A stretch of 64,000 nucleotides of DNA. Origin: Ostrinia nubilalis. Lineage: Eukaryota > Arthropoda > Insecta > Lepidoptera > Crambidae. The notes under the pieces are model-generated. The model saw only the letters and a list, made by a program, of their open reading frames with translations, had not been told where the DNA came from and did no database searches. The stretch is taken from the NCBI RefSeq assembly GCF_963855985.1, contig NC_087093.1, positions 13,717,001 to 13,781,000 on the forward strand. Direction: 5' to 3'. The position numbers and the translations under genes were made by a program. Every line of letters starts with the position of its first letter. The stretch's first letter is position 1. Positions 1 through 28,300 of the stretch are shown here, piece by piece.

Positions 1-152
1 TACATGTTCAGCATATTTAAGAGGTGTTTTCTCACATTAGCGGGTTACAAATGGATAGTCAAAAGCTATGTGTTAGTCTAATAAAGTTGGCTTTGTATCT
101 GGAATATTGACACATATTTCCAACTTTGTCTCAACCAGTCTGCATCCCGCAG

Positions 153-3100
153 GAACTCCAGAATGAGGTCGGCGCCCTACTCGAGTTTCGCGATCTCGTC
201 ATCGAGACCTTCCCGAACCTGCGCTCTAAGATGCCGCCGTCGACGCCGGCCAGCGGCGCGCGGCGCGACTGGGAGCCCGGCGTGCGCGTGCGCCGCAAGC
301 TGGCCGGCGGCGGCGGGGACGCCACGCGCGCCAAGCCGCAGCCCTCTGTCCAGGTGAGAATGGTTCTTGTGCCTATACAACTGGGACCAGATTCGTGTAA
401 TCTTTGTATGTTGGGAAGTTGACGTCATTAGCTGTGTCCATGCCTACGAGTAAGGCCACGCGCGCCAAGCCGCAGCCCTCTGTCCAGGTGAGAATGGTTC
501 TTGTGTCTATACGACTGGGACCAGATTCGTGTGACCTTTGTATGTTAGGAAGTTGACATCATTAGCCGTGTCCACTGTCCACGCTGACGAGTAAGTTTCT
601 CGCGCGATTGGAGTGCGGTAGATCGTCCACAACGTCTGATGTTAACCGGGTCGAGACTTTCCCGAACTTGCGCTCTAAAGGTGCGTCCAGACGGGTCCGC
701 GTGACACTCTTGTCATCCTGCTCACTCTACTCTTGAGTGAGCAGGACAGCAATAAGATGCCGAGGTCGACGCCGGCCAGCGGCGCGCGGCGCGACTGGGA
801 GCCCGGCGTGCGCGTGCGCCGCAAGCTGGCCGGCGGCGGCGGGGACGCCACGCGCGCCAAGCCGCAGCCCTCTGTCCAGGTGAGAATGGTTCTTGTGCCT
901 ATACAACTGGGTCCAGATTCGTGTAACCTTTGTGTGTTGGGAAGTTGACACCATTAGTCGTGTCCACTGTCCACGCTTACGAATAAGTGCCTCGCGCGAT
1001 TGGAGCGCGGTGGATCTTCCACAACGTCTGATGTTCCCGAACCTGCGCTCTAAAGGTGCGTGGTGCGACCACACGGTTCCGCGTGGCACTCCTGTCATCC
1101 TGCTCACCCAGCTCTTGAGTGAGCAGGATAGCAATATTATAGGACCAGATTCGCGTAACCTTTGTATGTTGGGAAGTTGACATCATTAGCTGTGCCCACT
1201 GTCCACGCCCACGAGTAAGGGCCTCGCGCGATTGGAGCGCGGTGGATCGTCCACAATGTCTGATGTACCATTAACCGGGTCGAGACTTTCCCGAACTTGC
1301 GCTCTAAAGGTGCGTCCAGACGGGTCCGCGTGACACTCTTGTCATCCTGCTCACTCTACTCTTGAGTGAGCAGGACAGCAATAAGATGCCGAGGTCGACG
1401 CCGGCCAGCGGCGCGCGGCGCGACTGGGAGCCCGGCGTGCGCGTGCGCCGCAAGCTGGCCGGCGGCGGCGGGGACGCCACGCGCGCCAAGCCGCAGCCCT
1501 CTGTCCAGGTGAGAATGGTTCTTGTGCCTATACAACTGGGTCCAGATTCGTGTAACCTTTGTGTGTTGGGAAGTTGACACCATTAGTCGTGTCCACTGTC
1601 CACGCTTACGAATAAGTGCCTCGCGCGATTGGAGCGCGGTGGATCTTCCACAACGTCTGATGTTCCCGAACCTGCGCTCTAAAGGTGCGTGGTGCGACCA
1701 CACGGTTCCGCGTGGCACTCCTGTCATCCTGCTCACCCAGCTCTTGAGTGAGCAGGATAGCAATATTATAGGACCAGATTCGCGTAACCTTTGTATGTTG
1801 GGAAGTTGACATCATTAGCTGTGCCCCTGTCCACGCCCACGAGTAAGGGCCTCGCGCGATTGGAGCGCGGTGGATCGTCCACAATGTCTGATGTACCATT
1901 AACCGGGTCGAGACTTTCCCGAACTTGCGCTCTAAAGGTGCGTCCAGACGGGTCCGCGTGACACTCCTGTCACCCTGCTCACCCAGCTCTTGAGTGAGCA
2001 GGATAGCAATATTATAGGACCAGATTCGCGTAACCTTTGTATGTTGGGAAGTTGACATCATTAGCCGTGTCCACTGTCCACGCTTAGGCCTCAGCCTCGA
2101 ACTTAGCGGGCAGCGGGGCGGCGGCGGCGGCGGCGCGGGAGCGGCAGGATCTTATGCGTAAAATCAAATAGACCGGTTCTCGAAAACAGCGGCGCGGGAG
2201 CGGCGCCGGAGCGGGCAACGAGCGGGCAGCGGCGAGGGAGCGGGCAACGAGCGGGCAGCGCACTCCTTCTTTTGCCCACAATAAATCGAGCGTTAGGAAT
2301 AAATTTGAATCGAAATAAAATTGTCGCCGTTGTTCAGACATTTCGTTTGCGAATAAAAACAAATATCTCGACAACACAACCCCGAACACAACATTTCGCC
2401 GCTAAAGCGCCGCGCGAGCTGCCCGCTTGTTTCGAGAACGGGTCTGCGTTGCCCGCCCCGCTCCCGCGCCGCCGCCGTTCCCGCCCCGCTGCCCGCTAAG
2501 TTCGAGGCTGAGGCCTTACGAGTGTCTCGCGCGATTGGAGTGCGGTAGATCGTCCTCAACGTCTGATGTTAACCGAGTCGAGACTTTCCTGAACCTACGC
2601 TCTAGAGGTGCGTCCAGACGGGTCCGCGTGACAGTCTTGTCATCCTGCTCACTCTGCTCTTGAGTGAGCAGGATAGCTCTAAGATGCCGCCGTCGACGCC
2701 GGCCAGCGGCGCGCGGCGCGACTGGGAGCCCGGCGTGCGCGTGCGCCGCAAGCTGGCCGGCGGCGGCGGGGACGCCACGCGCGCCAAGCCGCAGCCCTCT
2801 GTCCAGGTGAGAATGGTTCTTGTGCCTATACAACTGGGTCCAAATTCGTGTGACCTTTGTATGTTGGGAAGTTGACATCATTAGCCGTGTCCACTGTCTA
2901 TGCTTATGAGCCTCGCGCGATTAGGGCGCGGTGGATCGTCCACAACGTCTGATGTTAACCGGGTCGAGACTTTCCCGAACCTGCGCTCTAAAGGTGCGTG
3001 GTGCGACCACACGGGTCCGCGTGGCACTCGTGTCATCCTGCTCACTCTGCTCTTGAGTGAGCAAGATAGCTCTAAGATGCCGCCGTCGGCGCCGCAAGTT

Positions 3101-6100
3101 GGCCGGCGGTGGCGGGGACGCAACGCGCGCCAAGCCGCAGCCCTCTGTCCAGGTGAGAATGGTTCTTCCTATACAACTGGGACTAGATTCGCGTAACGTG
3201 TGATGTATATTGGGAAGTTGACATCATTAGCCGTGTCCACTGTCTATGCTTATGAGCCTCGCGCGATTAGGGCGCGGTGGATCGTCCACAACGTCTGATG
3301 TTAACTGGGTCGAGAGAGACTTTCCCGAACCTGCGCTCTAAAGGTGCGTGGTGCGACCACATGGGTCCGCGTGGCACTCCTGTCACCCTGCTCACCCAGC
3401 TCTTGAGTGAGCAGGACAGCAATAAGATGCCGCCGTCGACGCCGGCCAGCGGCGCGCGGCGCGACTGGGAGCCCGGCGTGCGCGTGCGCCGCAAGCTGGC
3501 CGGCGGCGGCGGGGACGCCACGCGCGCCAAGCCGCAGCCCTCTGTCCAGGTGAGAATGGTTCTTGTGCCTATACAACTGGGTCCAGATTCGCGTAACGTC
3601 CATGCTTATGAGCCTCGCGCGATTAGGGCGCTGTGGATCGTCCTCAACGTCTGATGTTAACCGAGTCGAGACTTTCCCGAACCTGCGCTCTAAAGGTGCG
3701 TGGTGCGACCACACGGGTCCGCGTGGCACTCTTGTCATCCTGCTCACTCTGCTCTTGAGTGAGCAAGATAGCTCTAAGATGCCGCCGTCGACGCCGGCCA
3801 GCGGCGCGCGGCGCGACTGGGAGCCCGGCGTGCGCGTGCGCCGCAAGCTGGCCGGCGGCGGCGGGGACGCCACGCGCGCCAAGCCGCAGCCCTCTGTCCA
3901 GGTGAGAATGGTTCTTGTGTCTATACAACTGGGACCAGATTCGCGTAACCTTTGTATGTTGGAAAGTTGACGTCATTAGCTGTGCCCACTGTTCACGCCT
4001 AAGTACCTCGCGCTATTGGAGCGCGGTGGATCTTCCACAACGTCTGATGTTCCCGAACCTGCGCTCTAAAGGTGCGTGGTGCGACCACACGGGTCCGCGT
4101 GGCACTCCTGTCATCCTGCTCTTGAGTGAGCAGGAGAGCAATATTATAGGACCAGATTCGCGTAACCTTTGTATGTTGGGAAGTTGACATCATTAGCTGT
4201 GCCCACTGTCCACGCCTACGAGTAAGTGCCTCGCGCGATTGGAGCGCGGTGGATCGTCCACAATGTCTGATGTACCATTAACCGGGTCGAGACTTTCCCG
4301 AACCTGCGCTCTAAAGGTGCGTGGTGCTACCACATGGGTCCGCGTGGCACTCCTGTCACCCTGCTCATCCAGCTCTTGAGTGAGCAGGATAGCAATATTA
4401 TAGGACCAGATTCGCGTAACCTTTGTATGTTGGGAAGTTGACATCATTAGCCGTGTCCACTGTCCACGCTTACGAGTAAGTGTATCGCGCGATTGGAGTG
4501 CGGTAGATCGTCCTCAACGTCTGATGTTAACCGAGTCGAGACTTTCCTGAACCTGCGCTCTAAAGGTGAATCCATACGGGCCCGCGTGGCACTCCTGTCA
4601 TCCTGCTCACCCAGCTCTTGAGTGAGCAGGATAGCAATAAGATGCCGCCGTCGACGCCGGCCAGCGGCGCGCGGCGCGACTGGGAGCCCGGCGTGCGCGT
4701 GCGCCGCAAGCTGGCCGGCGGCGGCGGGGACGCCACGCGCGCCAAGCCGCAGCCCTCTGTTCAGGTGAGAATGGTTCTTGTGTCTATACAACTGGGTCCA
4801 GATTCGCGTAACGTGTGATGTATATTCCGTGTCCACTGTCCATGCTTATGAGCCTCGCGCGATTAGGGCGCGGTGGATCGTCCACAACGTCTGATGTTAA
4901 CTGGGTCGAGAGAGACTTTCCCGAACCTGCGCTCTAAAGGTGCGTGGTGCGTCCAGACGGGTCCGCGTGGCACTCTTGTCATCCTGCTCACTGCTCTTGA
5001 GTGAGCAGGATAGCTCTAAGATGCCGCCGTCGACGCCGGCCAGCGGCGCGCGTTGTGACTGGGACTGGCGGGGACGCCTCGCGAGCCAAGCCGCCCTCTG
5101 TCCAGGAAAGTTTGTTTACTGAAACTTGGACCAGCTACGTGTAACCTTGGAACTTGACATAATTAGCCGGGTCCACGCCTAAGTGCTTCGCGCAATTGGA
5201 GCGCGGTAGATCGTCTGCAATGTGTGATGAATATTGGGTAGTTGATACTATCAGCCGGGTCAAGACATCCCGAATCTCCTCCAGCTCTAAAGGTGCGTCC
5301 ACAACGGGCGCACGGGCTTGCGCTACACGATTTTCGTCTTGCTTACCCTGCTCTTGAGTGAGCAGAACGCTGTTCTGTATCGAAAGCTATTATGAACAGT
5401 GCATGCAGGTGCCGGGTGCCATGTCAATTGAAAACTGAGTTTGTAGAGGTAGAACTCTTGGTTAATGGTGTCAACAACCCATTAAGCTATGTCAAGTATG
5501 TCTTCAGTCCGTAAGAAAATACAAGAATATCTCCACTTCTTCAACAGGACTCCGGCTTCAGCACGGAGACGTCCTGCGGGAAAGACGCGCACTCCTCGTC
5601 AGCATCAGCGTCAGCCTCGGCCACGCGCTCGCGGCCGCTGGAGGACGAGTTGTGGGCGCTGCTCGACGTCATCCAGCGCAAAGGCGTCCGTCTGCGAGAC
5701 GAGGCCGAGCTTCTCCGAGGCGAGCTCGACGAGCGACATTCCGCAGACACCGCGGAGGAATCCTTCGCAAGAGCCCTGTCAGGTAAGGGAGAAGCCACAC
5801 GGTGAGGTGCGGTCGCGGCGCGGCGCCGGAGCGATGTCACTGCGGCGTCCTGCATTTAAAAATCAATGATATGCCAGACGGTGCGTTCCGGCGCCGCACC
5901 GCAGGCACACAGCACTTCGATTGAGCGAGACGGTGCCGTATTGCGGCGCTGCATACCACATGTGTACAGTGATGCGGCAAAATGCTCCACCAAAGCCGGA
6001 CATGTTTGGCCTTTTAGGGAATGGACATGGCGCACAATTTTTGTTGAAGATGCAAAAAAAAACTACAAAAAATTAGAATGAATACTGTATTTTTACTTTT

Positions 6101-9100
6101 TTGATATCTTTAAAAATGACTGAAATATTCAAGCTCAAAGTGCGCTCTTCCGCTAGGAGCGATTTTCCGCGCGGATTTTGAAAATGTGACGTAGTAACAT
6201 GAAAAGCTGCATGTAAGATATTATCTGTGTACAATGGTTAGAATGGTTAGTAGGGGAGCCGAAGCGGGGATTTCGGGACTTACTAAAGAGTGGCAGACTA
6301 ACATACAAGGAAATACTTTGCACCTGGTTGATTACCTAAAAGTATGAATTTTTGATATATAATTAACTTTAAAAAAAAATAAAACCGACTTCAAATGCGT
6401 GAACACAAAAAAAAACTAAAAATTAAAAATATTGCGTATAAAAAAGTTCAACCCCAATTTTCCACCCTTGGGGGTGAAATATTTTCTTCAAATTCGCATG
6501 AAACCACCCTTTTGATAATACCTATTCAACAAAAAAATAATCGTTCAAATTGATTTATAATCGGCGGAGATATTGCGTATAAAAAAGTTCATCCCCAATT
6601 TTCCACCCTTGGGGGTTGTTTTTTCTGTTATTAAATTTAAATGGGACCACCCTTGAGGTATTACCTATACGCCGAAAAAAGATTTGTTCAAATCGGTTCA
6701 TAATTGGCGGAGTTATCGCGTAACAAACATAGAAAAAAAAAACATTCGGGTCGAATTGAGAACCTCCTCCTTTTTTGAAGTCGGTTGAAAACGGCATTAG
6801 TTCTTATGCCTCTCACCCAAAAAATACCTCAATTAAGCCCAAATTTGAGACCGCAGCCAAACTATGAGGGACGATGGAAACTAGCCTAGATGGAGGACAC
6901 ATGAAATTGAACTTCTGCTTCTTCATTGATAAAGACTTATCATTTACCATACCTTATCATTTTGTATTCCATTTTCAAGTCACTTTTTTTTCGCTTATTG
7001 TTTAAACAAAACGTGGGATTTTTTTAAATCTCAGGTCTTTTGAACGCACATCTGAACGATGTCTGGTTTTAATTTCTTCAGTTACTCCGTGACCATGGCG
7101 CTTGCAACAGTGCCGAAATATTGGAAACTCAAAACTAAGGTACATGGTAGCAATCCCGTTAGTAATAATAATAGGAAAATGTCTTGAAAAATAAGTAAAT
7201 CGTATATTACTTTATGTAACTAATTTTATTATGTATCATACTTATAACTAATCACTTCATTCAGAACTAGAAAACGATTCCAAGGATTCCACTTTTCTTC
7301 AATAGATGATCAAGATAAAGAGGTATTTATTATAAATTGCTCTTCCACCATTTTAATTATTCTATCTTACATCTTACTTGATGAAAACTTTTTCAATTTT
7401 ATTTACATGGTCATAACATTTTCACCATTCCTCTGCACCAATTTGTGAGGTACACCTGAAACCCCCGATAAAGCAGCTATTATAAGAATAATTTAAAAAA
7501 AAAACCTCCTTCTGACGCAGTTAGGTAATAAACTAAATGTATCCAATTTCACTCCAACTTACTGTCAACTCAACGACGCGCTTTAAAATCAAAGATTGAC
7601 TTTGAATTATGCCTTATTTTACAATACACATTGAAAACAATATGACTTGCTTGAGCTTTTTCGACTTTTTCACAAAAATAACAAATAGGCATGAAGAGAT
7701 TACAAAATTTCTGCAGCGACTGACAGTTCACTTGATTTACTTTGACAGGTGACAATAAAGCCATAGACATTTGCCATATGAAAGACACACTTTTTCAATA
7801 TTTTTGTTTGCCATGAGATTCTGGTACCTATACCTATCATTTAATGAAAAGATAAACTAAACTTTTTCAGCACAACGAAAATCTGCTTTGGCGCGTAGCA
7901 ATGCAACGTGACAACTGCAGTTCGGACTTCTTTATGCGTCCACTACACATACAATAAAATTTGAACTATCGCACATTTTTTCTTTTTAATTCTAATTCAG
8001 TAAAAAATGTTTTTGAAACCTTCATTCAAAATTCAAAAGTTATTATCATATGACAGAACTTATGACCAGACTATGTACATTGAATAAAATATTTTTCTTT
8101 TTATCATCAAGCTTAGCAGTCTAATAAGTTACTATGACACTCGAGTTAATCCACATTCAGCACCATAGCCTCCCCTTCTACAAGGCCCTCTACAAATGTC
8201 AAAACGTCACTTAACCCTTTTAGCACCAGTTCTTTTGTTTTTGAGAAGATGTACCCAAATTTTTATATCAATTTAATATAGTCCAGTCGTTTGGTACAAA
8301 TTAACGTGGTTACCTGGAAAGTGTTCCGGGAAAATTGGTGATTAAAATAGATTTCGCTATGCTCTCTGTTAGTCTGTTAACTAAGTGTGATTGCCGCGCT
8401 CGTTGCGAAATTGGAAAAATGCTGCCTTAGAGAAGATTTTTGATAGTTACATTCTTTCCTATTTCGTCGTTACAGCCAAATGACGTTCACTGCTGGACAA
8501 AGGCGAGAGGCCTTTGGGTTTTCCATAGGTTTTTCATAATGAACAGTCCTGCGCTGCCCGCATTCAGGTTCTTCCCGCGACCTTTACCAGATCGTCAGTC
8601 CACCTAGTAGGAGGCCTGCCCACGCTACGTCTTCCAGCCCGTGGTCGCCACTCAAGAAATTTTCTGCCCCAACTCTGTCTGTCTCTACGAGCTATGTGTC
8701 CCGCCCACTGCCACTTGATTTTAGCAATTCTGCGTGCTATGTCGGTCACTTTGGTTCTCCTGCGGATCTCCTCATTTCTGATTCGATCACGCAGGGAAAC
8801 CCCGAGCATAGCCCGCTCCATCACCCTTTGGGTGACCTTGAGCCTTCTTATGAGGCCCATAGTAAGCGACCACGTTTCAGAACCTTAAACTTTCCTATTT
8901 ATTTCACGACTAGCTTTTGCCTGCGGCTTCACCCGCGTGAAATTTAGTGTCACAGGTAGGCATAAATTATAGCCTATATGTTAATCTGGGTTACAAACAA
9001 AACAATAATATTGTACAGTTTCAACAAAATCCGTTGAGTACTTTTTGCGTGAAAGAGTAACAAACCTGAGACACAGGAATCTTCCTAGTTCAAGTATCAA

Positions 9101-12100: not shown

Positions 12101-15100
12101 TTTGATAATACTCTGGGACGGATCCAGAACGGTTTTTTTTATTCAGTGTTTCGTCTCACTGGGACGGAACGAGTTGTGGGACGAATCACTGAACGAGCCT
12201 GCAAAATAAAAATTATATCAATTCCTATCGAATCCGCAGCCGCCGGCGGTTGCAGCGAGTGCGGCGACTTCCAACGTTTGCGCTGCGAGCGCGACGCGCT
12301 CCTCGCGCGAGCGGCCCAGCTCGAGGCCGAGGCGGCCCGAAGCCCCGCGTCGGCCCCGCGGACTCCCCTCGGCCGCCTGGACTCGGCGCTGGACACGCCC
12401 GCGCGGCCGCCACGCGTCGCCACGCCCGACTCCAAGAAGTTCGCGGCGATTCTCCTCGAGAGCAATCCCGTCGAACTGCAACGCCAGTTGCTGACGTCCA
12501 CCGTTCAGAATCAGGTCAGTGGGGCGTTGGTTTTTGTTTATTTTTTAAGATACCCCGTAGATTACCGACTTTTTATTGGACGAAAGTTTATCGAGCTTCG
12601 CTTTATGATTCCTCATACAAATTGGAAGCCGACTAATTACTAACGGAGTTTGCTGTTTCTCTAAGAAACTAGTGCCCGTTTTCACCATCAATCCCTAATT
12701 TTTAAGTAAGCTAAAGTTTAAGGCAACACAATATGAATTTTGTTTTCATAGGGGTAGGTGAAAACGGGCATAAGTTTTCTAGATTATGACATACTGGGGG
12801 TTTGTCTTTACAGTATCGGCCATTTGAACATAATCTGATTATAACCACATGCCACAGTGTCATGTTAGCGTCAAGTGCGATGTGGCCAGTACGTAATGTG
12901 TACATATCTAAAGAAACCTGTCCGATCCGAAAGGGGTGATTCTGGTACTTACATACTACAACTTTTTATAATGTTACTAATATGGGATCGAATATGATTT
13001 TTACACCAGTTGCAGTAATATAATAATGCAGTTTTGGTGCATTTTACTGAGAAAAAAATACGCAACAATACTTTTTACTGATCTGTGGGTGGCCACGCAA
13101 GTCTAGAAGAAATTAGTGACAATAGGGTCATGTGACTGGGTAATGAAATCGAAATTCTATTTAGTAGACAGATAATAAAAAAATATTGGACACATATTTT
13201 TTATTTTTTTTCATAATCGAATAATTACAGTATTATATATATTGAGTTGAAATGTCGCGTGACGTCACTTTTGAGTAAAAAATCTACTCAAGCGTGACGT
13301 AAGTACGTAACGCGCCATTTCAACTCGATGTACCTAGCACTGTTATTATTTAATTATGAAAAAGAAAATAAAAAATATGATTCTAATATTTTCTAATTAT
13401 CTGTCTGACGGACAAATAATTGAAATTTTGACATCTAGCCTATTCTCATCACTCACTCACTAGTTAGACACTATAAACAATCCACAGATGTCGTATTGCA
13501 ATATTAACAAACAGTTACACAATAATAAATATTACGGGCCTTCTTTTTGTGTCTAAAGTGACTAAAAAGCAAATTCTTATGTGTAATATCGTACATCAGC
13601 TTTATAATTTGGCACCGCACTGACTTCAAAGTATTAATAAATAATCTTCGGTTTTTATATTTTCTCTACCGGCATTTGTAATTTCTTTATTATTTTTTAT
13701 CAGCCGATGTGATTGAGAAACTACGTTCCTCGGTAATTATGAGTCGACTCGTGATCAAACAACAATAAAAGTTGTTAGTACAATTGATCAGTGTGCGATT
13801 CTGATCGTGACAGCGCTGTTTAAGTTAATCAATTAGCGTATGGAACGTAACGGTGGAGCGCGAATTGTTTCATGCACTGGACGCGACAGTTATCGACCCA
13901 TTTGGTAATCTAAATGATTATTACTGCATACGTCGGTCACCTCTTTTGCAATTTTGACGATACCTATTTCAGTTTACTAGAATTCTTGTAGTGCACTACT
14001 ATAAGCGCTCAGCGTGACGTTTCTTTACATTTTGACAGTTAATAACACGCTACTATACGGAAGATCAGTGTTAAATGGGAAAGTCAAACTTCCCAAGGTC
14101 TCTCAAGGGCTTATTATATCAATCAGTATTAAATAGCAGTAGTTATTTGAGACTAAATAGAAAGAGGCTAAGGTACGTTATTATGGACGAAGTCATTTGT
14201 CTCTTAATTCTAGATCCTTTATGGCCAGTAAAATGCCAGCACAATAAATTTCACAAACTAGCCCAGATTTATTTTCGCGATCATTATAGTAACGAGAGCA
14301 CAAAATTGCGAAACGTCAAACGCAAACGACCCAACTGAATTTTTGACACATTTTTTGTGTTCGCAAATTACCTGATGGCTAATTGCAGAATAGCTGAGGT
14401 AACAAGTGCTGAGGAAAGCTTGCAGTAACGAGCAGTGTCAAACGGGGTGACGTAACGAGGGATTTCTTCAAATTACGCGGAACAGTAAATAAGGCTAATG
14501 GAGTGTGGCGATCACTCGAGCCGCTCTTAAGGCTTCACTACACTAACATAACTCCTTGTTATTGCAATGATTTGCAATCACAAAACAGCCGTAAAAACGA
14601 AGAGACCCTTCAAACACGATCATATTTTGGCAAAATGATCATAAATAATCTTCATACTATCTATCATGCAAGCGCTTCGTCTAACTAAAGTGAGGCAAAA
14701 TTATTTTCCATCCAATGTCTTCTTACATTGTTTGGCTTTGTCAACTGTCAGAACGTATGGAAAAAAAATAAGCCAGTGGTCTAGTTTGAAGTGCCTCACT
14801 TTTCTTGCACTTACTCGGTTTGTAAATGCTATAATTCTATGTTTATTTAACACGAGCATTATCTGTTGTGAAAACCATATAAATATGCGTACAGCAATTT
14901 GCCCGATGCGATTAACCCGAATAAACATGACTGATGCACATAATGCATTTAGAAATAATGAAAAATCTTGCAATTAGTGGCAATTACTTGTACCTACTTA
15001 CTCCAATCCTAATTAATTGTGTCATTAAATTGACATATAAATCAAAGAAAAAAAAATAAGTAAGAATCACTGGTATGACAGTTTATCTAATAAGAATGGG

Positions 15101-18100
15101 AAAGTGACAGTTGGATTTCATTTCATTTACTGATTTCGCGCTTAGTTGATATAAATCCGCAATAATCCAGTGTGTGTAAGCCTTTACAGCCAAATCCTAG
15201 TTAGTAACTCTATTGTTAGCAGTTTGAATGCTCATTTAATGGCGATTGCAACTGTAGGCGTCCTTGGCAGCGATTATCTGCAAATATTGCCATTGCGTCA
15301 CCGTTCCGTTATTACAAACGTCTAAAATCATCGCCTAAACACCTTATTTGAACGTTTATGCGTCACTATAACACCTTGGCCTATACTGATTGACCGTATC
15401 ACGCTTTAAACGTTTCCTTGTTCACTTAAATCCTGGCTGTAAATACAACCTACAATACTACCTAATTTTTTTCTTTAACTTACATCGATAAGTGGTGCGC
15501 AACCAAGGCCAGATATTTTTGCATTAATCAAATATTTGTGCTGATATTTAGATAGCGCTGAGTAACGTTTTCTACATTAGCCAATTTACCACACAATATT
15601 GTTAAATTTTATTAGGTACTTGAACCTTTGCCCTTGGTTTTAGAAAGGCCTTTTAACTAAGTGTCCAATTAAATAATATAGTGGCGAACGCTTGGGTAGT
15701 CAGTCAGTATTGATTGAAACATAACTGATTCGACTCGCGCTTTACCCTTATCTGTATCTCTACTAGTTTTTATCATACGCACCTTGTATCTGAAAACTTT
15801 CATACTCACTGAATATAGTAACGAAATATTCAGTTATATTTTGTAACATAAAATTCTATTGTTGTATTTCATGACCTGCCAGCACACATAAGCAAAGGGT
15901 ATTAAAGAGTTGGTAAATCTTTTCTAGTATTGCGATTGCGAATATGATGGAAGGTGGTTAAATAAGTAATCCAGGTGTTCGTTTTCCCAGCTCATCATAA
16001 ATGAAAACCATTCATTATTTATACATACACACTGCGTACATGCAATCAGTGCGTTCTAAAACGATAAGATTCAACTGACGTCACATCTGAATGTCGTAAT
16101 TTCGTTCCACGGGGTCTTTCCTCAATTATGTCCACTAAAATATTTTAATGATTCTGCCTGAGTCATTCGAGTTGGTGCAACGCTTTAAAATACGGATAAT
16201 TGCTGGAACTTCCTAGAAATAAGAAGTCAGTGGGGCAACCAAGAGTGGCAGTAGTTCCCAAGTCCGTTATTATAACTGCTGAACGGTCATAACGCGATTA
16301 ACCTCTGCTAATCGCCGTCCTACTCCCTTCATAGCCGCTTCTGTAGGCCACCGCTAACAGCCATACACCGCCGCTGTATTTAATGACTATGCTTTGCCAA
16401 CAAAAGGCTTGGAACCTTTAGAGACCCTTTCTCTGAATGTCCATTATGAACAAACTATTTATCAGCCACTAAAGAAGATTGTGTGAAGCAGCGCTACATT
16501 AATAATAAGCAATGTTTTCGGTATAAATGGAGCAAAATAATAAATAATGGATTTATTCATAGGATCGCCGGTGAAATCATTCATGTTCAAGTATCTATTT
16601 CATTCCTATATATTTTGACGTACGTATGATCAGTGATTGTATATTTATTATTCATCAAATGTCTATAGTTGTGAAGTAGTTATAGAAATGCATTTTATCA
16701 TTAGTTTATTCAGTTTTATCATGTTGATTGCGGCTGTAATCGTGTCGCTGGCTAAGTATATTATGACTGCCAACTGCCAAGCTATAATTTGTGCCATATC
16801 ACGAGTAATAAGCATTTCTTCGTTAAATGCTCGCTTTACTTGTCGTAACACTAACACCGTTCGCAGATATTAGACATCACTAGTTCTCTTTGTTTAATTT
16901 ATCTTGTAAATATCATCTCAATCAATCGATAACTAGGACAACGTATCGATTAATTGCTCTTTTGATTTCTTTTTTGTGGAATTCCTTTGCCGCTTATGTG
17001 CATATTATGATATTGGACGCGTTTCTGATATCATCACAACTTTTGCCAACTATCTATGAGTCAGTTTACCTCTTTCTTGACGAAGGGAAGAGTTATAATG
17101 ACGACTTTTGAACCTTTATTTTGTTATTACTATAGCAGTTATTAAATGATTTGTGATGCATAGAAATGCTTAAAATATGAACGCATTATTTGGCGGCTTT
17201 TAAGTTTGAAAGCGATATTTTTGACCATTTACACAAGAAAATAGTATACAACTGTTTTTTTTGGCATGATGGTTCTTTTTAGTGGAGCCATTATTTAACA
17301 TGGACTTAGAACTACCAATTCTGCCTGACCCAGGTTAAGAAACCCTGGTTTAGACAAAAAGATGTACTCGCTTTTAGGAAAAGATTGCTCCATTTTAATC
17401 AATACTTTACATTGATGTTTTCGGTGTTGTAGCAGTTTATCATTTGTTTCATTCTAAATGTTAGCATCATGCTGATGTTTGTGTACAATGATAACTAATT
17501 AACATTATTTGTGTTCCAGGTGTTAGTTGACCGATTGAAACGAGCGGCTGCGCATCGGACGGTACTGCTAGAGAGGCTTGAGCGCGCGCGGGATCTCAAC
17601 GAAGACCTTAAATTTAGGGTACGTCATGTTACATGTTCTCGTAGGGTAGTTTTTGGTATTTACTGCGATATATTTATAAAACGCGAATCGAGAGTAAAAA
17701 ATGTTGTGTCGTTAAGGTAGAGTACAATGGGATCCATCCTTTCTTTTTGTGGATATCGTAAAAGGCACAAATGGTTGTCAAGGGACAAATTATACGAACA
17801 TTCGGTCACCCCAACTCGTCTGACCGGTATGGAGAGTATCGAGTTAGACCAAAGGTTTGCGATTTTGCAGTACAGGTTAAAGTGATGGAATTGAAAATTT
17901 TCAACTTGCCTGCTGAAATGCATGATACAGATTTTTTAAACGTTGAAAGTACAATCGATCTTGAGTAAATCGATTTCAGGTTTTGCTTTCACATAATTAT
18001 TATTCATAAGTGTCACCAGTGCAGTGGTCAAAATTGAACAAAATGTTTTTGATTCTTATTTATTTATTTATTTAAAATCTTTATTGCACACATAAAAAAC

Positions 18101-20289
18101 AGTGGTACAACAGGCGAGCTTAATGCCATGTGGCATTCTCTTCCAGCTAACCAGAAAATTTGTTCTTACTAAAGTTTTCAATTTCCATTTCAGCTAGAGG
18201 AAAAGAGCATAGAGCTGGAAGGAGCGCGCGCGCTCGTCCGCAAACTCGAGCGCGGACGTCGCAGCCCGAGCCCGCGCCACAGCAGCATGCGAGACATGGA
18301 GCCGCTGCCGATACCGCGCGCCGCGTCCGCCGAACGCTTGTGCGATACGCCGCGCCGACGTCCTTCACGCATCCCACTCCACACGGCACATAAAGGCGCA
18401 GCCCCCAGACCACCCCGTCCTGCCTCCCAGGGCTCCGTGCGATCCGCCTCCTCAGCCCGCGGACGAAAGGAACCAAAGTCCGGAGTCCCCGTCCGCAGGT
18501 CACCGCCCGACAACAAGGTGCGCGCCCGCTCCTTCTGGAACTCCTGGTTCTTTAAAGATTCCGGCTCGTGAGCCCCTAACCGTGTGCACAGTGACTCACG
18601 TGTATGCCATTATGTCGATAGTGAGTTTTCGTTTTACTTTCCGTTGGTTCAGTGTTGGTTCGGCGCGCATGACTAACTTTGTGTTTGTCACTAATAAGTT
18701 GTGATGGCTCAAAAATCTGCGTGTGAAATCTGAGTTTAGTTTAAGTTTCGTTATGAACTCGTTTCTTATGGTTATGTTCGACGTTATTATTATGTTGTGC
18801 TTTTTTCCAAACTTTATTGTATTTCGAATACCCAATTTGGAGAATTGTAAACGTATATTGTTATAATATAACGTGATGAATTGTAAAAAGATTTTTACGC
18901 CACACAAGTTCATGTCGTTGTATAAATTTTCGTTCATGCTAATCATAAAATTAATTTGTAAAAGTTATCGTATCTGGGATTTGACGCTGTGTTCCCTATA
19001 TTTTTGTATTAATCGATAACTGAAAAATATAACAGACGTCCCGCATACGAAAACTGGTAATAAATGTCACATACAATTTCAGTCATCGTAATAATATCAT
19101 ACCTAACTGTAAATAAAATTAATTTATAATCAATCGATACACTATGTAATCAATCATGTACCATTATGATAGCCAGAGACGGTAAGTGTTACAATTGCGT
19201 TTAACAAAGTATTAATCACCATTTGCCACTGAACACATTGCTAATATTTTTGTTTTGAAAGTATTTTTCAGTTAGTTGTTTTGAGTTTAGTTTTTTTGAC
19301 ATAGTGGCATAATCGCATAATAATCGGCTAATCGAACACATGCAAAATTGAAGCCTCCCACACGGCACTGTTGAGTATTTTGGGCAGTACGATTCTAGAC
19401 AACGTTTCATGCACCCCTACACAAACTTGAGGTATCTAACAACCGTATTTAGAATATTTGTTTTAATATAACAAATAATATGCTATTAAAATTGTGTAGT
19501 GGAATACACAGTTTTTACTTGTTTCTCAATGGATTTCTTTCAAACAGAGTCACGACGATGATGAATAGGGAACCTTACGCGAAGTTAATTCTGTAGATCA
19601 CACTCGTGCCTACCTAGTTTGCTACTTGCTAATTGATTTAAAATGTTATGAGCGTGTGCTTGTACGGCAATGGCCTTGTATTTCGGATGACACATGCCTA
19701 GTCTTCGCAGCGGTGACCGGACCCGCAACGGATACCAGTTGCGGGCCTGTCTAATTGCCAAACATAAGATTCACTCGTGTAATGTAAAATCTTTCATCGT
19801 TTTACCAAAAACGCTCTCATCGGAGCTCGCGCTTGACAAAATCGTGTTCCATAAAACGCTGCAACGCAAAAAGTCAAAAAGGTTCCCTATTGATTAACGG
19901 GGATCAAAAGTCGAGCAATACAGAACGCCGGCCGAGGCGTCGCGTAACTCGCTTGCATGTCGCAGAGCGGACCGGAGCCGGAGCGGGCGTGGGCCGACGA
20001 GCTCCGCGAGTCACTCAAGGAGACTCGCGGGGAAGCCGCGTGGCACGCGCGGGCCGCGCTGCTGGCCGAATACGTTGCGCGCACGCAGCGTTTGACGCGC
20101 ATGCGGCCGCTGCCCGCGCCGGAACGTCTGACCTACGCGCCAGATCTCGCCTTGGAGCTCACGAGATCCATCCTCGACGACGAGGCGTTGTGGGACAACC
20201 GCCCGCAGCAGTACTTCGAGAGCATGAGCCGGGAGCCTGACGCTGACACGCCGGCGGACTACACCAGCGACTCGCTGGACCCGTACTGA
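153..20289 (+). CDS. Coiled-coil protein gene, 3' part (5' end off window)
   Basis: Inferred exons are 153-353, 5548-5782, 12240-12514, 17520-17618 and 18194-18571 (stop), with an alternative route 18194-18517 to 19966-20289 (stop). All joins keep one frame: 353 ends in phase 0, 5782 leaves one base that 12240 completes, and the rest join in phase 0. The protein starts here with ELQNEVGALLEFRDLVIE. It continues with a serine-rich DSGFSTETSCGKD stretch, an acidic/basic heptad-rich segment (ELWALLDVIQRKGVRLRDEA) and a long coiled coil over exons 3 to 5 (NPVELQRQLLTSTVQNQVLV, then VLLERLERARDLNEDLKF). It ends in a basic, Ser/Pro/Arg-rich tail. I do not recognise a catalytic domain. The insect protein quick-to-court is a coiled-coil candidate for comparison, but I could not confirm it. 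The first codons and promoter lie left of base 1. The first exon could also start at 139 if the upstream AG is used. Confidence 0.8.
757..879 (+). CDS. Candidate additional exon copy (array copy 2)
   Basis: This 123-bp body is in phase 0 at both ends, open throughout, and followed by the same strong donor (CAG then GTGAGA) as the original exon. Two acceptors are possible: AATAAG directly before the ATG, or GAGTGAGCAG 12 bases earlier, which follows a pyrimidine-rich stretch and also keeps the frame (adding DSNK). Copies at 1386-1508, 2684-2806, 3427-3549, 3779-3901 and 4642-4764 have the same properties. Whether any copy is spliced into mRNA is unknown. Confidence 0.4.
2087..2515. mobile_element. 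GC-rich foldback MITE, PIF/Harbinger-like (copy 1)
   Basis: A 429-bp element with terminal inverted repeats beginning GGCCTCAGCCTCGAACTTAG, flanked by TTA on both sides (2084-2086 and 2516-2518). It sits inside an array unit whose intact siblings read CGCTTACGAG at this point, so the duplicated target TTA is directly visible. A 3-bp TTA duplication with inverted repeats starting GG is typical of PIF/Harbinger non-autonomous elements. The ends are GC-rich simple sequence. The middle (about 2270-2400) is AT-rich and identical in other copies. Confidence 0.85.
6382..6788. mobile_element. Lepidopteran non-autonomous element with ACCGACTTC ends
   Basis: Inverted ends AAAACCGACTTCAAA and TTTTTTGAAGTCGGTTG enclose two diverged internal repeats, each with AAAAAAGTTCAACCCCAATT-like and CCACCCTTGGGGGT segments (about 6440-6480 and 6575-6620). 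A related ATGAAGTCGGTTAAAAA end fragment occurs at about 30840. Superfamily not assigned. Confidence 0.6.
8456..8895 (-). mobile_element. RTE-type LINE 3' fragment (reverse transcriptase C terminus)
   Basis: The minus strand encodes the C-terminal tail of an endonuclease-reverse transcriptase of the insect RTE class: IARRIAKIKWQWAGHIAR, then SVGRPPTRWTDDLVKVAG (8860 down to 8564). It is followed on that strand by the 3' sequence complementary to ACGTTCACTGCTGGACAAAG. It is truncated and dead. Other copies of the same tail lie at about 11280-11465, 26078-26145, 29598-29915, 39775-40025 and 60139-60232. Confidence 0.85.
8910..9242 (-). mobile_element. Helitron-like non-autonomous element, with internal insert
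   Basis: On the minus strand it begins TCCTACTAATATTATAAATG and ends GCAGGCAAAAGCTAG before T, preceded by a GC-rich hairpin. A TC start, a CTAG end and insertion between A and T match Helitron rules. It is the same family as 38849-39043 but longer by about 140 bp of unrelated internal AT-rich sequence (about 9065-9200). Confidence 0.75.
9361..10434. mobile_element. Lepidopteran repeat with CCGGCCAAGTGCGAGTCGG start
   Basis: It starts AAACCGGCCAAGTGCGAGTC and ends with AGGTACGGAACCCTAAAAA, preceded by a GACGGACGGACGGAC stretch. The inner part has related modules about 300 bp apart, each with GCCGAATTTCAAGATTCTGA-like sequence (about 9815 and 10135). It is a very common arthropod non-autonomous repeat. 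I do not assign the superfamily. Confidence 0.7.
11270..11470 (-). mobile_element. RTE-type LINE fragment
   Basis: The minus-strand complement of CTTTACCAGATCGTCGGTCC and CGCTACGTCTTCCAGCCCGT is the same reverse-transcriptase tail as at 8564-8860, here shorter and interrupted. It lies in an intron of the coiled-coil gene and does not contribute to it. Confidence 0.75.
12673..12775. mobile_element. Short palindromic MITE (GCCCGTTTTCACC ends)
   Basis: Inverted ends GCCCGTTTTCACCATCAATC and GGTGAAAACGGGCATAAG. The same family appears as a partial copy at about 37200-37275 and as a full copy at about 51680-51777. Confidence 0.65.
13163..13408. mobile_element. AT-rich inverted-repeat element (MITE)
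   Basis: Long imperfect arms (AGACAGATAATAAAAAAATA versus ATTTTCTAATTATCTGTCTG) surround a centre with CGTGACGTCAC and GCGTGACGTAAG. It lies in an intron. Family unknown. Confidence 0.55.
13409..17519. other. Intron of the coiled-coil gene, nothing recognised
   Basis: AT-rich intronic sequence between exons 3 and 4. I saw no conserved-looking exon, no tRNA, and only short chance ORFs in it. Confidence 0.5.
18055..18150. repeat. LINE 3'-tail type repeat just before exon 5
   Basis: A TTTA-rich tract is followed by TTTATTGCACACATAAAAAA and GGCGAGCTTAATGCCATGTG. The reverse version (ATTAAGCTCGCC and TGTGTGCAATAAAGTCTTTA) is at about 30418-30485. It ends about 40 bases before the acceptor at 18193. 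Confidence 0.55.
18194..18571 (+). CDS. Terminal exon A of the coiled-coil gene
   Basis: Acceptor TTCCATTTCAG, then LEEKSIELEGARALVRKLE (end of the coiled coil), then a Ser/Pro/Arg-rich low-complexity tail ending FWNSWFFKDSGS and a TGA stop. An internal donor (AACAAG then GTGCGC) at 18517/18518 leaves the frame in phase 0 and allows splicing to 19966. So this exon can be either terminal or internal. AATAAA motifs near 19057 and 19110 could end the short transcript. Confidence 0.8.
   Translation, partial: LEEKSIELEGARALVRKLERGRRSPSPRHSSMRDMEPLPIPRAASAERLCDTPRRRPSRIPLHTAHKGAAPRPPRPASQGSVRSASSARGRKEPKSGVPVRRSPPDNKVRARSFWNSWFFKDSGS
19966..20289 (+). CDS. Alternative terminal exon B of the coiled-coil gene
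   Basis: Acceptor CTTGCATGTCGCAG, then an open frame of 107 residues starting SGPEPERAWADELRESL and ending DYTSDSLDPY and a TGA stop. Codon use is GC-rich like the other exons. It is in phase 0, so it fits after 18517 (and also directly after 17618). It could alternatively be a separate small gene starting at the ATG at 19957, which overlaps the acceptor. The downstream 3' UTR is long and AT-rich, up to AATAAA at 22098. Confidence 0.65.
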   Translation, partial: SGPEPERAWADELRESLKETRGEAAWHARAALLAEYVARTQRLTRMRPLPAPERLTYAPDLALELTRSILDDEALWDNRPQQYFESMSREPDADTPADYTSDSLDPY

Positions 20290-22316: not shown

Positions 22317-25300
22317 TCATTTTACTTGGTCAAACTTAGGTCCTAATAGGATATCTCTTATTTCTAAAGTTTCAGGGTCTTTATTTATTCTTATGAACCC
22401 ATGCTGTTTCAATTCTGAAACAAAACCATTTGATTATGAAGGACTAACAGCCTTATGTAATGGAATCTTTCTGGGTAAAGATATATTTATTATGAACTAG
22501 CTTTCCGCCCGCGGCTTCGCCCGCGTGGAATTTTGTCTGCCACAGAAAAACTTTATCGCGCGCGTCCGTTTCAAAAACCAGGATAAAAACTATCCTATGT
22601 CCTTTCCCGGGACTCAACCTATCTCTATGCCAAATTTCATCAAAATCGGTTCAGTGGTTTAGGTGTGAAAGTGAGACAGAGTTACTTTCGTTATAATATA
22701 CTGGTCATCACAAAAATCGGCCCACCTACGTTTTACAGGAAAACTCGTTTCTACTGACACAATCATGGTGCCCCAACAATATTGGTGTTATTTGAAAGCC
22801 CAATAAATATCCTTAAAGAAAAACACATTTAATTTCTTAATAAACGATTAACATAAACGCGATATACAATAAATGAGACTTGAAAAAAGACCTCACTTTG
22901 AGCTCAATTACACCCTCTGGGATCAATTACACCAATTTTTATGGTTATAAAACCAAATAATGATCTCACGTGTCCTCTTTAACAGATGGATAGCGATTAA
23001 TCCCACCTTAAAACAGTTTTATAGCCATAAAAGCGTAAGCGTGGCTCAAGCGTAACTACCTATTTTTTGAAGAAGTGACTCTGGATTCTTCTACATTTTT
23101 GGGGTAAAACTTTCCTTTAATGAAATGAAGTTTAGAACTAGGCTTTTAAGTGGTGCCAATATTGGTGGGAAGTGGGGATGCATACGTTTGAAAGTGGTTG
23201 TCGCGGTAGGGTCGATTTTTGTGATGACCAGTGTATTAGTATAGGTTTGTACCTATGCAGCTATGCCTTTCCTAATGTGGTAATAGGCGATAGAATATTA
23301 TTTTTTTGTGCCCACAACCTTTTTTGAGAGCTGGATCCACGCCTGCCAAAGAAGCTGTAAGGTCGGACCTAAGTAAGCTATAGTAAAATGCAAGCACTTA
23401 CTGAGTATAGAGGTGAAGCAGCGTGCAGCGATGACAGCGCCGTGGCCGGCCAGCGACGGGCCCGCGCGCACCAGACTTCGGACTGTGAGCGGAGTGCGCC
23501 GCGCTTTAAGACCGCCTAGAATCTTGACCATCGTGCCTTCTGTGCCCCATTGCTCGCTACAAAAGAAAAACTTATTGAAAAAGGCACTAGAGAAATGGAG
23601 ACTGGGAAAAGACTTTCTGGGTTTGGGGAGTTTTGAATTTGAAAGATATTTTGCGAAACGGACTCTGGGGATATAAATTTAAAAAAAATATTGTGTAAGG
23701 ATGAAGTTGCAAGATGATACATCGATGTAAATCGATCTTTTTTTTTAATAGAATAGTGCATAACTGAGTTGTTTCCTAGGGTACTGGAGCGGTGCAGGAA
23801 GGTGTACTATCGGCAACAGTGTCAACTGCCTATTGCCAGTCATGTCGTCTCGTTCTATCGCAATGAATCGCCATTTGAAGAGAGCGAGAGCAAAAACAGA
23901 AATGGATAGTTAACACTGTGGCCCATAGTACATTTATTGCTTGAAATATCAGCAAGAATTATTTTATCATCACATGTCACCACTCCCGCACCGCTCCACT
24001 AACACAGGAACCTACCTATTCGCTATGCATAAAAATATATTTTCACATTTCATGCAACAATACTAACCGTATAAATCTCCTCGAGTCCGTATTTTGGTCG
24101 GAGTCTCCCAACGACACTTTGGTCCTATCCAAGCTTTCCAGTTGCGTTTCTGAGCTGTTGCGAGGTCAGGCCTACCTCTTGCAACATCACAGCGAGACTC
24201 ATTTAGTAGGAACCTACTCAGTTGTACCTGTAAATATTTCGTGTCTAACAATACTAACCGTATAAATCTCCTCGAATCCGTCGTCTGGTCAGAGTCTCCC
24301 AATGACACTTTGGTCCTATCCAAGCTCCCGAGTCGAGTTTCGGAGCTGTCGCTGCCGTGTCTAGCCTCGCGGGTGCTTCGCTGGGTGTCTTCGGCGGGCT
24401 TAGGGCCCGGCAGGTCGGCCAGGCCTGCCTCTTGCAGCATCACAGCGAGACTCCCTTAGGAACCTACTCAGTTGTGCATATTTCATTTCTATCTAACAAT
24501 ACTGACCGTCTCTTCAATACTGATCTTCTAGAGTCCTTCGTCTGGTCGGAGTTTCCTAACAACACTTTGGTCCTATCCAAGCTCCATAGCTGCGTTTCAG
24601 AGCTGTCGCGAGGTCAGGTCGGCTAGACCTGCCTCTTTCAGCATCACAGCGAGACTCCTTTAGTAGGAACCTACTCAGTTGTACCTGTAAACATTACGTG
24701 TCTAACAATACTAACCGTATAAATCTCCTCGAATCCGTAGTCTGGTCGGAGTCTCCCAAAGACACCTTAGTCCTATCCAAGCTCCCGAGTTGAGTTTCGG
24801 AGCTGTCGCTGCCGTGTCTAGCCTCGCGGGTGCTTCGCTGGGTGTCTTCGGCGGGCTTAGGGCCCGGCAGGTCGGCCAGGCCTGCCTCTTGCAGCATCAC
24901 AGCGAGACTCCCTTAGGAACCTACTCAGTTGTGCATATTTCATTTCTATCTAACAATACTGACCGTCTCTTCAATACTGATCTTCTAGAGTCCTTCGTCT
25001 GGTCGGAGTTTCCTAACAACACTTTGGTCCTATCCAAGCTCCATAGCTGCGTTTCAGAGCTGTCGCGAGGTCAGGTCGGCTAGACCTGCCTCTTTCAGCA
25101 TCACAGCGAGACTCCTTTAGTAGGAACCTACTCAGTTGTACCTGTAAACATTACGTGTCTAACAATACTAACCGTATAAATCTCCTCGAATCCGTAGTCT
25201 GGTCGGAGTCTCCCAAAGACACCTTAGTCCTATCCAAGCTCCCGAGTTGAGTTTCGGAGCTGTCGCTGCCGTGTCTAGCCTCGCGGGTGCTTCGCTGGGT

Positions 25301-28300
25301 GTCCTCGGCGGGCTTCGGGCCCGGCAGGTCGGCCAGGCCTGCCTATTGCAGCATCACAGCGAGACTCCCTTAGGAACCTACTCAGTTGTGCATATTTCAT
25401 TTCTATCTAAAAATACTGACCGTATGGTTCTTCTAGAGTCCGTAGTCTGGTCGGAGTCTCCCAAAGACACCTTAGTTCTATCCAAGCTCCCTAATTGCGT
25501 TTCAGAGCTGTCGCGAGGTCAGGTCGGCCAGGCCTGCGTCTTTCAGCATCACAGCGAGACTCGCTTAGAAACCTACTCAGTTGTACCTGTAAATATTTCG
25601 TGTCTAACAATACTAACCGTATAAATCTCCTCGAATCCGTCGTCTGGTCAGAGTCTCCCAATGACACTTTGGTCCTATCCAAGCTCCCCAGCTGTGTTTC
25701 GGAGCTGTCGCTGCCGTGTCTGCCCTCGCGGGTGCTTCGCTGGGTGTCCTCGGCGGGCTTCGGGCCCGGCAGGTCGGCCAGGCCTGCCTCTTGCAACATC
25801 ACAGCAAGGCTTCTCTCGGGAGATTGGGGGGGGCCGGTTGGGATAGCAGCGAGATTCGTCCCGGGTGAGCGCGGAGGGACGATGGTAGGTGATTGTATGT
25901 TCGCCGCGGACGGTATGTTTTCTTTGTCTGCTTCTGTTTGGACGGATGGAAGAATAAGTTAGTGACTAAAGTGTAAGGTAATTGACGAAAACAATGAGAG
26001 ACATTGAAGTTACTACATAGTAAAAAAGTTAAAAACTCAGGACCTGGTTCACCAATTCCTGATAAAGTGCGTAATCATCATTATTTCGAGCCACAGGACG
26101 TCCACTGCTAAACATAGGTCTCCCCCAATTTACCATATCGCCTTTGGGAGGTGTGTAATAGCTTATTAGAAATCTATTGTCAGATAAATTACAATTTCGG
26201 GTTCACACTTTAAACAATATCTCAGATTGATATAAATTCTTCAGTAACCAGCAACCTATTTTTTTATAGAGGGTAATGTTATACCTACCTATGGTGGATC
26301 ACTATCATAAATCAATAAGAAAAAGAACATACCAATATCAGGCACTGCTTCGATAGCCATCTGTTGACTTTGCCGGAACGAGACGTAACCAATCAGCCTT
26401 TGTCTTTTGGGCTGAAAACAATCATGCAATGGTCATATTTTGAGGCACGCGCTATGAAAACGTTATTATTACGGGTTTCATTTGGTTTTACATCACGCGA
26501 TCAATTTTGATCTTATATTATTAGTTTTATTAAACATTCTCTAAAAGTCGAGTGCCATGTGTCGGATTTTCATAGTTACTTAAATAAACCCTTATGAGGA
26601 CGATTCCAAAATGAAAAGTTCGAGAAAGGCCAAAAGAAATAAGATCAAAATCCAAATAACAGACGACTTTTGGAAGAAGCCCCACAAACGTTAATTGTCT
26701 TAAAAAATACTTAATATCTTAGCAGCAATTGGCACTCAAGCAAAGATTTATACGAACGAAATTAAATTAATTAAAAATTGAAAACAAAAAACTTACTGAA
26801 ACTTCATATTCGCTTGTCCGTTTCCTGGATTGGGAGAGCACCTCTAACTTCTGTGTGGGCAAGTCAGCTATGTCTTCCGGGTTCGGAATCGTCACGTTCG
26901 GTTGTTCCTCCACGTTCAGAAGCTCTGCTGCGTTGAGATTCTCTCGAGTCATTTCTAATTCGGGGACTGGCTGGTCAATTTGGGCCGTGGTTTTGTCTAG
27001 TGGCGGAATTTCTGCTTCTTCTTCAATCCTTTCGAGGCCGGATCTAGTGCGAACTCTGCGAGATCTTTCCGCAACGGGTTCCTGGGTAAATGACGTTTAA
27101 AACTCAAGTCTTTCGATTTAAACCTATCAGTCACTGCTTACGGGCTTAGATGTATTCCTGCGCTAAGATTTACTCGATTGTCGTTTAATAATAACCTACT
27201 TTAAACTGTAGGTACCTACTTTTTTGTAGATATGAAAACAGTTAATAAAATGTATGTGAACATGTGCAAAAGCATAAGCACTACACACAAAAACAAAAGC
27301 ACTGGTCATACGAAATACTGGAATACTGGAAGCCTACACAATTTGATTGGATAGTTTATAATAACAGCTTTTTTAACGTATTTTTAAGACTTCGATGCAA
27401 CAATACTCACACTAAGAACATAAGAATTGGGCATCACTCGCGAAAGTGCCAGTGAACCAGATTATTTTCACAGTTTCGTAGGTTAGGTACCTACCTACTG
27501 CAAGTTTTGACGCATGCAGAATTTGTTGCATGGACGTTTTCCTTAACCACACCTCATTTCACACAGTTTACTTCTTTATTCACATATTTTACAATCACGT
27601 ACCTCCATTTCCCTGTCGTCCGCAGCCGGTCTAAACACACCGAGGCTTCTCTGAAAGAGCCTCGTGAGCGGTAGCGCGATCTGCCCGTGGATGTAAGCAC
27701 CCGCGTGCGCGGGCCGATGGAAATACGTGTCTACCGGCACTCGGATTTGGACTATATCGTCCGAGCTATCCTGAAAGTTGCCGCGGTTGAATTATTACGT
27801 TTAAGCTGTTTCTGGAAAATGTGCTCGTAAATGGGAATGATCTTCACGAATGTTATGCTGCTTTTACACTGTGCGGAAATTAGCCAAGTCAAAAACACAG
27901 TGGGGTGGGTATGAAAAATGAATGAATTTTATCTCCACTTCTCTGTTTTTTTGACTTGACTCGGCTAATTTCCGCATAGTGTAAATCCGCCATTAAATAA
28001 GTACACTAACAAAAAAGGTTGAATTTATTACAAACTTAGGTAGATTGTGAAATGAAAACCGTTAGATTTAAATTTACAAATTCACTACGTATCTTATTAA
28101 CTAATCAAGTTTGGTAGATTACGTAGGTAAATGTATTTCACCTTTACTTGCACCTCAAATGAAACGAAATGTAAAAATGTGTAATCTTACACTATTGCCA
28201 TGAAAATAGAGACAATATGACGGAACGAAAAAGAGTCAGAAAGACGAAATAATTTACAAACCAAATCAATGTTTATGTGGGTAGTCACAAATAGGTAAAT

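What the first reader, a model, noticed from the sequence alone, without database searches (positions are those of the whole stretch)
153..5375. Exon amplified into a frame-preserving array in a coiled-coil gene
A single GC-rich exon body of 123 bp (41 codons, phase 0 at both ends) is present seven times intact and three times decayed, each intact copy with the same GTGAGA donor. Because the body is phase 0-0, any number of copies could be included without shifting the frame, giving a protein with a variable number of Gly/Arg/Pro-rich repeats. Near-identity of the exon bodies suggests recent amplification or gene conversion.
Basis: partly seen in the sequence, partly recalled or inferred. Interest (0 to 1): 0.8.

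Follow-up and report, generated by a model that had tools for sequence, protein, structure and literature searches.

The report
Partial exon copied through its intron
In a moth gene for a cell-skeleton protein, the last 123 bases of one exon have been copied six more times into the following intron and kept nearly identical, although the related proteins examined carry the segment at most once, so the copies are probably silent spares kept alike by gene conversion.

Summary
The repeat is real. The gene is a moth javelin-like (jvl) gene, 478 of 484 residues identical to Ostrinia furnacalis LOC114356022. A 123-bp block occurs seven times in full (the true exon plus six intronic copies) and three times in part; a search of the window's own genome found it only here. 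But the block is not an exon. The true exon is 201 bp (153-353), and no copy contains its acceptor or first 49 bases. A copy's left edge is a duplication junction beside a truncated palindromic MITE. None of 120 listed relatives shows two copies. The surprising part is homogeneity: copies differ at 0-3 of 123 positions in the body but, apart from one recent twin pair, by 7-13% just upstream. The near-identical zone includes fourfold sites and the first 18 intron bases, and begins where homology to the true exon begins. That points to gene conversion involving the true exon more than to protein selection. Each copy also ends CCCTCTGTCCAG|GTGAGA, acceptor-like and donor-like at once, so a splice into a copy would restore the same exon end: a possible recursive-splice ladder. 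RNA data are needed to decide.

The parts
153..353 (+). true jvl exon (67 codons), parent of the copies; its 3' 123 bp (231-353) is the amplified body
   Evidence: 66 of its 67 codons match O. furnacalis and relatives; cccgcag|GAACTC acceptor, CCAG|GTGAGA donor
455..487 (+). partial copy (last 33 nt of body) with intact GTGAGA donor, from a 134-bp tandem duplication
757..879 (+). full body copy 2 (codon 3 CCG to AGG, Pro to Arg)
   Evidence: 2 differences from the true exon
1386..1508 (+). full body copy 3, twin of copy 2 by a recent 629-bp duplication
   Evidence: body identical to copy 2; 642-941 and 1271-1570 are 100% identical
2684..2806 (+). full body copy 4, identical to the true exon
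3077..3152 (+). decayed copy: 76 of 123 nt, frame-shifting internal deletion, donor intact
3427..3549 (+). full body copy 5, identical to the true exon
3779..3901 (+). full body copy 6, identical to the true exon; CAG acceptor lost
4642..4764 (+). full body copy 7 (one synonymous change, GTC to GTT)
5021..5105 (+). decayed copy: 85 of 123 nt, frame-shifting deletion, donor lost
5106..5375 (+). most diverged unit, at the 3' end of the array; ends in the truncated MITE (5282-5365) followed by unique intron
   Evidence: BLAST to other units mostly about 64-78% over the longer stretches; 5282-5365 matches dispersed copies at 78-85%
2993..3077 (+). representative B segment: left part of a palindromic 3-bp-target-duplication (TWA) MITE; 13 copies in the array plus the older one at 5282-5365
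2964..2991 (+). representative 28-nt exon piece (matches exon 202-229) just upstream of the MITE fragment; pieces of 20-28 nt at 13 places
2087..2516 (+). second, unrelated inverted-repeat element inserted in the array
   Evidence: 96.5% match to 52011-52441 and 87% to 32083-32435, in inverted-repeat form
5548..5782 (+). next jvl exon (DSGFSTETS...)

Best explanation
The array is a local tandem duplication inside the jvl intron. The repeated unit is the last 123 bp of the exon, its donor, some 100-200 bp of following intron, a short exon-like piece and the left part of a foldback MITE; unit borders lie at the truncated MITE (shown). The copies lack the true exon's acceptor (shown). Inferred: they are normally removed with the intron, so the mRNA carries one copy from the true exon; and their bodies are kept alike by gene conversion with the true exon, which limits divergence over the stretch they share with it. 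Because every copy has the same end and donor as the true exon, a stray splice to a copy's CAG|GT would regenerate the same exon end and donor, which may be why the array is tolerated (inferred).
For: Single-copy proteins in relatives: 104 of 120 with one match, 16 none, 0 two; three-copy query found single-copy proteins only. Copies lack exon nt 1-49 and the acceptor; AAG|ATG scores at the 5th-23rd percentile. 5 of 13 young units have no body, and 3 further body copies are truncated, two of them out of frame, as for unconstrained DNA. Divergence: body 3 of 123 columns vary against 27 of 145 upstream (Fisher p = 2e-5) and 29 of 74 at intron +27 to +100 (p = 1e-11); fourfold sites 1 of 31 (one-sided p = 0.02 against upstream); first 18 intron bases identical in all six full copies and the true exon. 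Synonymous and intronic identity, and a left edge of the uniform zone at the point where homology to the true exon starts, fit conversion better than protein selection. Mosaic histories: 128 of 276 informative-site pairs fail the four-gamete test. MITE family: 40 of 302 first-look candidates were scored and all 40 matched elsewhere in the genome. Other jvl exons show no such copies.
Against: No RNA, no second individual and no relative's DNA could be examined. The gene's own acceptors score from the 87th percentile up, so the in-frame CAG|GAYAGC (90th) and CCCAG|CTCTTG (97.5th) acceptors in front of some copies overlap real ones. Intron further downstream is also homologous to the true exon's intron yet is not uniform, which conversion with the true exon does not by itself explain. 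All six full copies keep an open frame. Columns are not independent, so the p values are rough, and some of the four-gamete sites lie in a poorly aligned stretch (-195 to -171). Ala/Thr at the GARR site varies among relatives (45 Thr, 10 Ala, 2 Val, 1 Ser of 58), so the Ala shared by all copies is weak evidence of recent conversion.
Confidence: 0.7

Rival explanations
1. Cassette-exon reading: some copies are spliced in as in-frame exons, using CAG|GAYAGC or CCCAG|CTCTTG, so the protein has a variable number of 41-50-residue Gly/Arg/Pro-rich repeats.
For: Perfect donors in all seven copies; in-frame acceptors at the 90th percentile in 5 of 6 copies and at 97.5th-97.7th in 2 of 6, no stop between them and the donor; all six full copies open, low divergence.
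Against: 0 of 120 listed relatives have two copies, and no protein holds any of the four junction words tested; 59 hits of the three-copy query are single-copy. Acceptors are not conserved: copy 3779 lost its CAG, 2 of 6 alone have CCCAG|CTCTTG. Synonymous sites are as uniform as replacement sites.
Confidence: 0.13
2. Recursive (ratchet) splice ladder: each copy's end, CCCTCTGTCCAG|GTGAGA, works as a 3' site that at once restores the same 5' site, so the intron is removed in steps and the mRNA is unchanged. Selection on this junction would keep the ends alike.
For: The junctions are the best CAG|GTGAGA-type acceptor-like sites of the array: 98.9th percentile (98.0th for copy 4765), near the real acceptors at 153 and 5548 (99.6th); the gene's other donors score 80th, 89th and 51st percentile as acceptors and one has no AG. 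Passages seen of PMC10809524 report AGGT sites used as both 5' and 3' sites, enriched 3.1-fold in human read data, and a dual-specific site within the polyubiquitin repeat.
Against: The pyrimidine-rich end is fixed by the coding sequence (PSVQ, the same in most listed relatives), so it need not be selected as an acceptor. The intron is only about 5.2 kb. Uniformity covers the whole 123 bp, not just the junction. The 5021 copy lost the donor but scores highest as an acceptor (99.8th), which would be harmful if used. Scores rest on a consensus matrix recalled from memory.
Confidence: 0.12
3. Assembly artefact: collapsed or wrongly repeated reads, or polishing that made the GC-rich copies alike.
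For: The uniform block is the GC-richest part; no reads could be examined.
Against: Each unit has its own flanking differences, deletions and an inserted element; the genome is held as 52 contigs for 495 Mb.
Confidence: 0.05

Closest known systems
Tandem exon duplication (as in insect genes with mutually exclusive exons such as Dscam or Mhc; recalled, and seen in search listings only)
   Same: copies of one exon, same orientation, in the neighbouring intron of the same gene
   Different: here only the 3' part of the exon is copied, without its acceptor; copies are nearly identical rather than diversified; no evidence of use
Concerted evolution of coding tandem repeats with dual-specific splice sites, polyubiquitin (PMC10809524, passages seen)
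   Same: near-identical repeats, AG|GT at which donor and acceptor coincide
   Different: polyubiquitin repeats are coding and contiguous; here repeats are intronic, spaced by 230-1300 bp, and the dual use is untested
jvl / javelin-like (Drosophila; PMC4510591, passages seen)
   Same: the host gene; relatives named javelin-like among the hits
   Different: no repeat of the segment in the relatives listed
Palindromic MITE with TWA target duplication (PIF/Harbinger-like by target size; class recalled)
   Same: 121-bp core, near-perfect inverted repeat in 4 of 5 loci delimited; TTA/TTA and TAA/TAA flanks in 2, unequal TAA/TTA in the 2 identical copies
   Different: in the array only the left part and centre survive

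Membership tests
jvl (javelin-like) gene | sequence match across the exons | tested here: met
   478 of 484 residues identical to O. furnacalis LOC114356022 over six exons; hits named javelin-like/jvl
Tandem exon duplication | copies of an exon in the same gene | tested here: met
   seven full copies of the 3' 123 bp
Tandem exon duplication | whole exon with its own acceptor copied | tested here: not met
   first 49 nt and the acceptor are absent from every copy
Alternatively spliced cassette array | copies joined in mRNA or protein | tested here: inconclusive
   not seen in 120 relatives' proteins; own transcripts not available
Recursive / dual-specific splice site | AG|GT with a good acceptor score | tested here: met
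   98.0th-98.9th percentile on a rough score
Recursive / dual-specific splice site | use as both 5' and 3' site | not testable with these tools
   needs nascent RNA
Palindromic TWA MITE (segment B) | dispersed copies with inverted repeats and 3-bp target duplication | tested here: met
   TSD identical on both sides in 2 of 4 delimited loci

The most novel reading that the evidence does not exclude
The intron carries a ladder of eight zero-length 'exon ends', made by copying the true exon's last bases and donor, over which the spliceosome steps (recursive splicing) without changing the mRNA; gene conversion with the true exon keeps acceptor, donor and exon end matched, and occasional use of a weak in-frame acceptor would add a 41-50-residue repeat to the protein.
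Probability: 0.1. Interest if true: 0.75.

Novelty: new variant of a known kind. Interest (0 to 1): 0.42.

Why it matters
If the conversion reading holds, a working exon and its intronic partial copies exchange sequence, so the copies can pass mutations back to a conserved gene; this is a small, bounded case in which conversion and selection can be separated. If the copies are spliced in, or used as ratchet points, it would show how a partial exon duplication becomes an exon array or a recursive-splice intron.

Tried and rejected
The reading that the 123-bp block is itself an exon: rejected, since relatives' proteins run through it without a break from 153.

That the unit is a dispersed transposon: the body/intron parts were found only at this locus; only the B segment is dispersed.

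A known RNA family in 1-6000: no match at gathering score. Pfam: no family for eight candidate reading frames, the two exons included.

That purifying selection on the protein alone explains the identity: not favoured, since fourfold sites (1 of 31 variable) and the first 18 intron bases are uniform too.

The order of events (MITE inserted into an exon copy and then truncated, or truncated MITE at the border of the first duplication) was not resolved: the 3' sequence GCTCTAAG occurs on both sides of the MITE fragment in some units, and the 28-nt exon piece has a diverged counterpart in the oldest unit.

Literature: six searches. 'Ostrinia' with 'javelin-like' gave 0 papers. No paper describing this array was seen in those listings; that is no proof of absence.

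Full report
What gene this is. Joining the open frames of four exons and searching proteins gave lepidopteran javelin-like (jvl) proteins: 203 hits, 120 listed, best O. furnacalis LOC114356022. With six exons placed (153-353, 5548-5782, 12240-12514, 17520-17618, 18194-18517, 19966-20289) the window's protein is identical to it at 478 of 484 residues. Earlier exons lie upstream of the window, at C6:13715518 and C6:13630239 of the 495-Mb, 52-contig genome; the window is C6:13717001-13781000. The window may be from Ostrinia or a near relative; no tool named the species. In Drosophila, Jvl binds microtubules and retains the Spn-F-IKKepsilon complex at the bristle tip (PMC4510591, passages seen).

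The repeat. The true exon is 201 bp. Its last 123 bp occur in full at six more places in the following intron and in part at three. Between them lie intron pieces (D, A), pieces of 20-28 nt of the exon's middle (202-229) at 13 places, and a segment B at 13 places plus one older, diverged place. Eight of the 13 B copies are followed by body (six full, two partial) and five are not. No copy holds the exon's first 49 nt or its acceptor. No other jvl exon is repeated. A genome search with 331 bp of the exon and intron, and one with a body-less unit, found 18 and 16 matches, all in this array.

Segment B. The old B copy matches dispersed genomic places (41 of 42 matches lie outside the query; 40 of 128 candidates scored). 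These are full palindromes: a 121-bp core with near-perfect arms (34-37 of 40 positions) in the four of five loci that my script could delimit, and 3-bp TWA flanks, identical on both sides in two of the four. A full-length query matched 40 places, each listed on both strands, of 302 candidates. In the array the right arm is missing and the unit border lies there. That a break at such a hairpin began the duplication is an inference.

Uniformity. Among the six copies, excluding the recent twin pair 757/1386 (3 of 145 upstream, 0 elsewhere), pairs differ by 7.0-12.9% over 150 bp upstream and by 6-21% at intron +27 to +100, except the pair 3427/4642, which is identical there (0 of 49); bodies differ at 0-3 of 123. 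Diversity is 0 from body position 15 to 114. The first 18 intron bases are the same in all six full copies and the true exon; the 3077 partial differs. Only three body columns vary: two in one codon (Pro to Arg, in the twins) and one synonymous. Uniform fourfold and intronic bases are not what protein selection alone would leave; conversion with the true exon would give a block whose left edge is where homology to that exon begins, as seen. It does not explain why more distant intron, also shared with the true exon, is not uniform. All copies encode GARR, O. furnacalis GTRR; but that site varies among relatives (45 Thr, 10 Ala, 2 Val, 1 Ser of 58 matched), so this is weak.

Could copies be spliced in? 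On a rough consensus score (matrix recalled, not trained), AAG|ATG is at the 5th-23rd percentile of 3490 AGs. CAG|GAYAGC, 12 nt earlier and in frame, is at the 90th in 5 of 6 copies; CCCAG|CTCTTG, 27 nt earlier and in frame, is at 97.5th-97.7th in 2 of 6. The gene's real acceptors span the 87th-99.6th. So inclusion is possible in principle. In two full copies (3427, 3779) and the decayed 3077 unit the exon piece, B and the start of the body form one open frame. But 0 of 120 relatives have two copies, and a query with three copies in a row found only single-copy proteins, 59 hits. The database is clustered at 90% and the window species' own proteins were not seen in it, so this is evidence about relatives.

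The junction as a dual site. The ends CCCTCTGTCCAG|GTGAGA score at the 98.9th percentile as acceptors (98.0th for copy 4765), against 80th, 89th and 51st for three other donors of the gene; a fourth has no AG. A splice from 353 to any of them would restore the same exon end and donor. This makes a recursive ladder conceivable and would also make the copies harmless. It is not shown: the sequence is fixed by the protein's PSVQ end.

Verdict. The array is real and local. The likeliest reading is a partial-exon tandem duplication, normally silent, homogenised by gene conversion; the protein-repeat reading and the ladder remain open until RNA is examined.

Noticed in passing
window 2087-2516, 32083-32435, 52011-52441: Three copies of a GC-rich inverted-repeat element of about 350-430 bp; the array copy lies between TTA and TTA.
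   Followed up: partly
window 24095-25805: Tandem array of a 457-bp unit, 3.8 copies, 93% matches.
   Followed up: no
window 18194-18571 and 19966-20289: jvl seems to have two alternative C-terminal ends: read-through ending KDSGS, as in P0002, or splicing to the last exon ending SDSLDPY, as in P0001.
   Followed up: partly
window 153-161: O. furnacalis isoform X2 lacks the first three residues (ELQ) of the exon, as if a CAG nine bases on were used as acceptor.
   Followed up: no
window 6429-6722: Two copies of a 143-bp AT-rich unit in the next intron.
   Followed up: no
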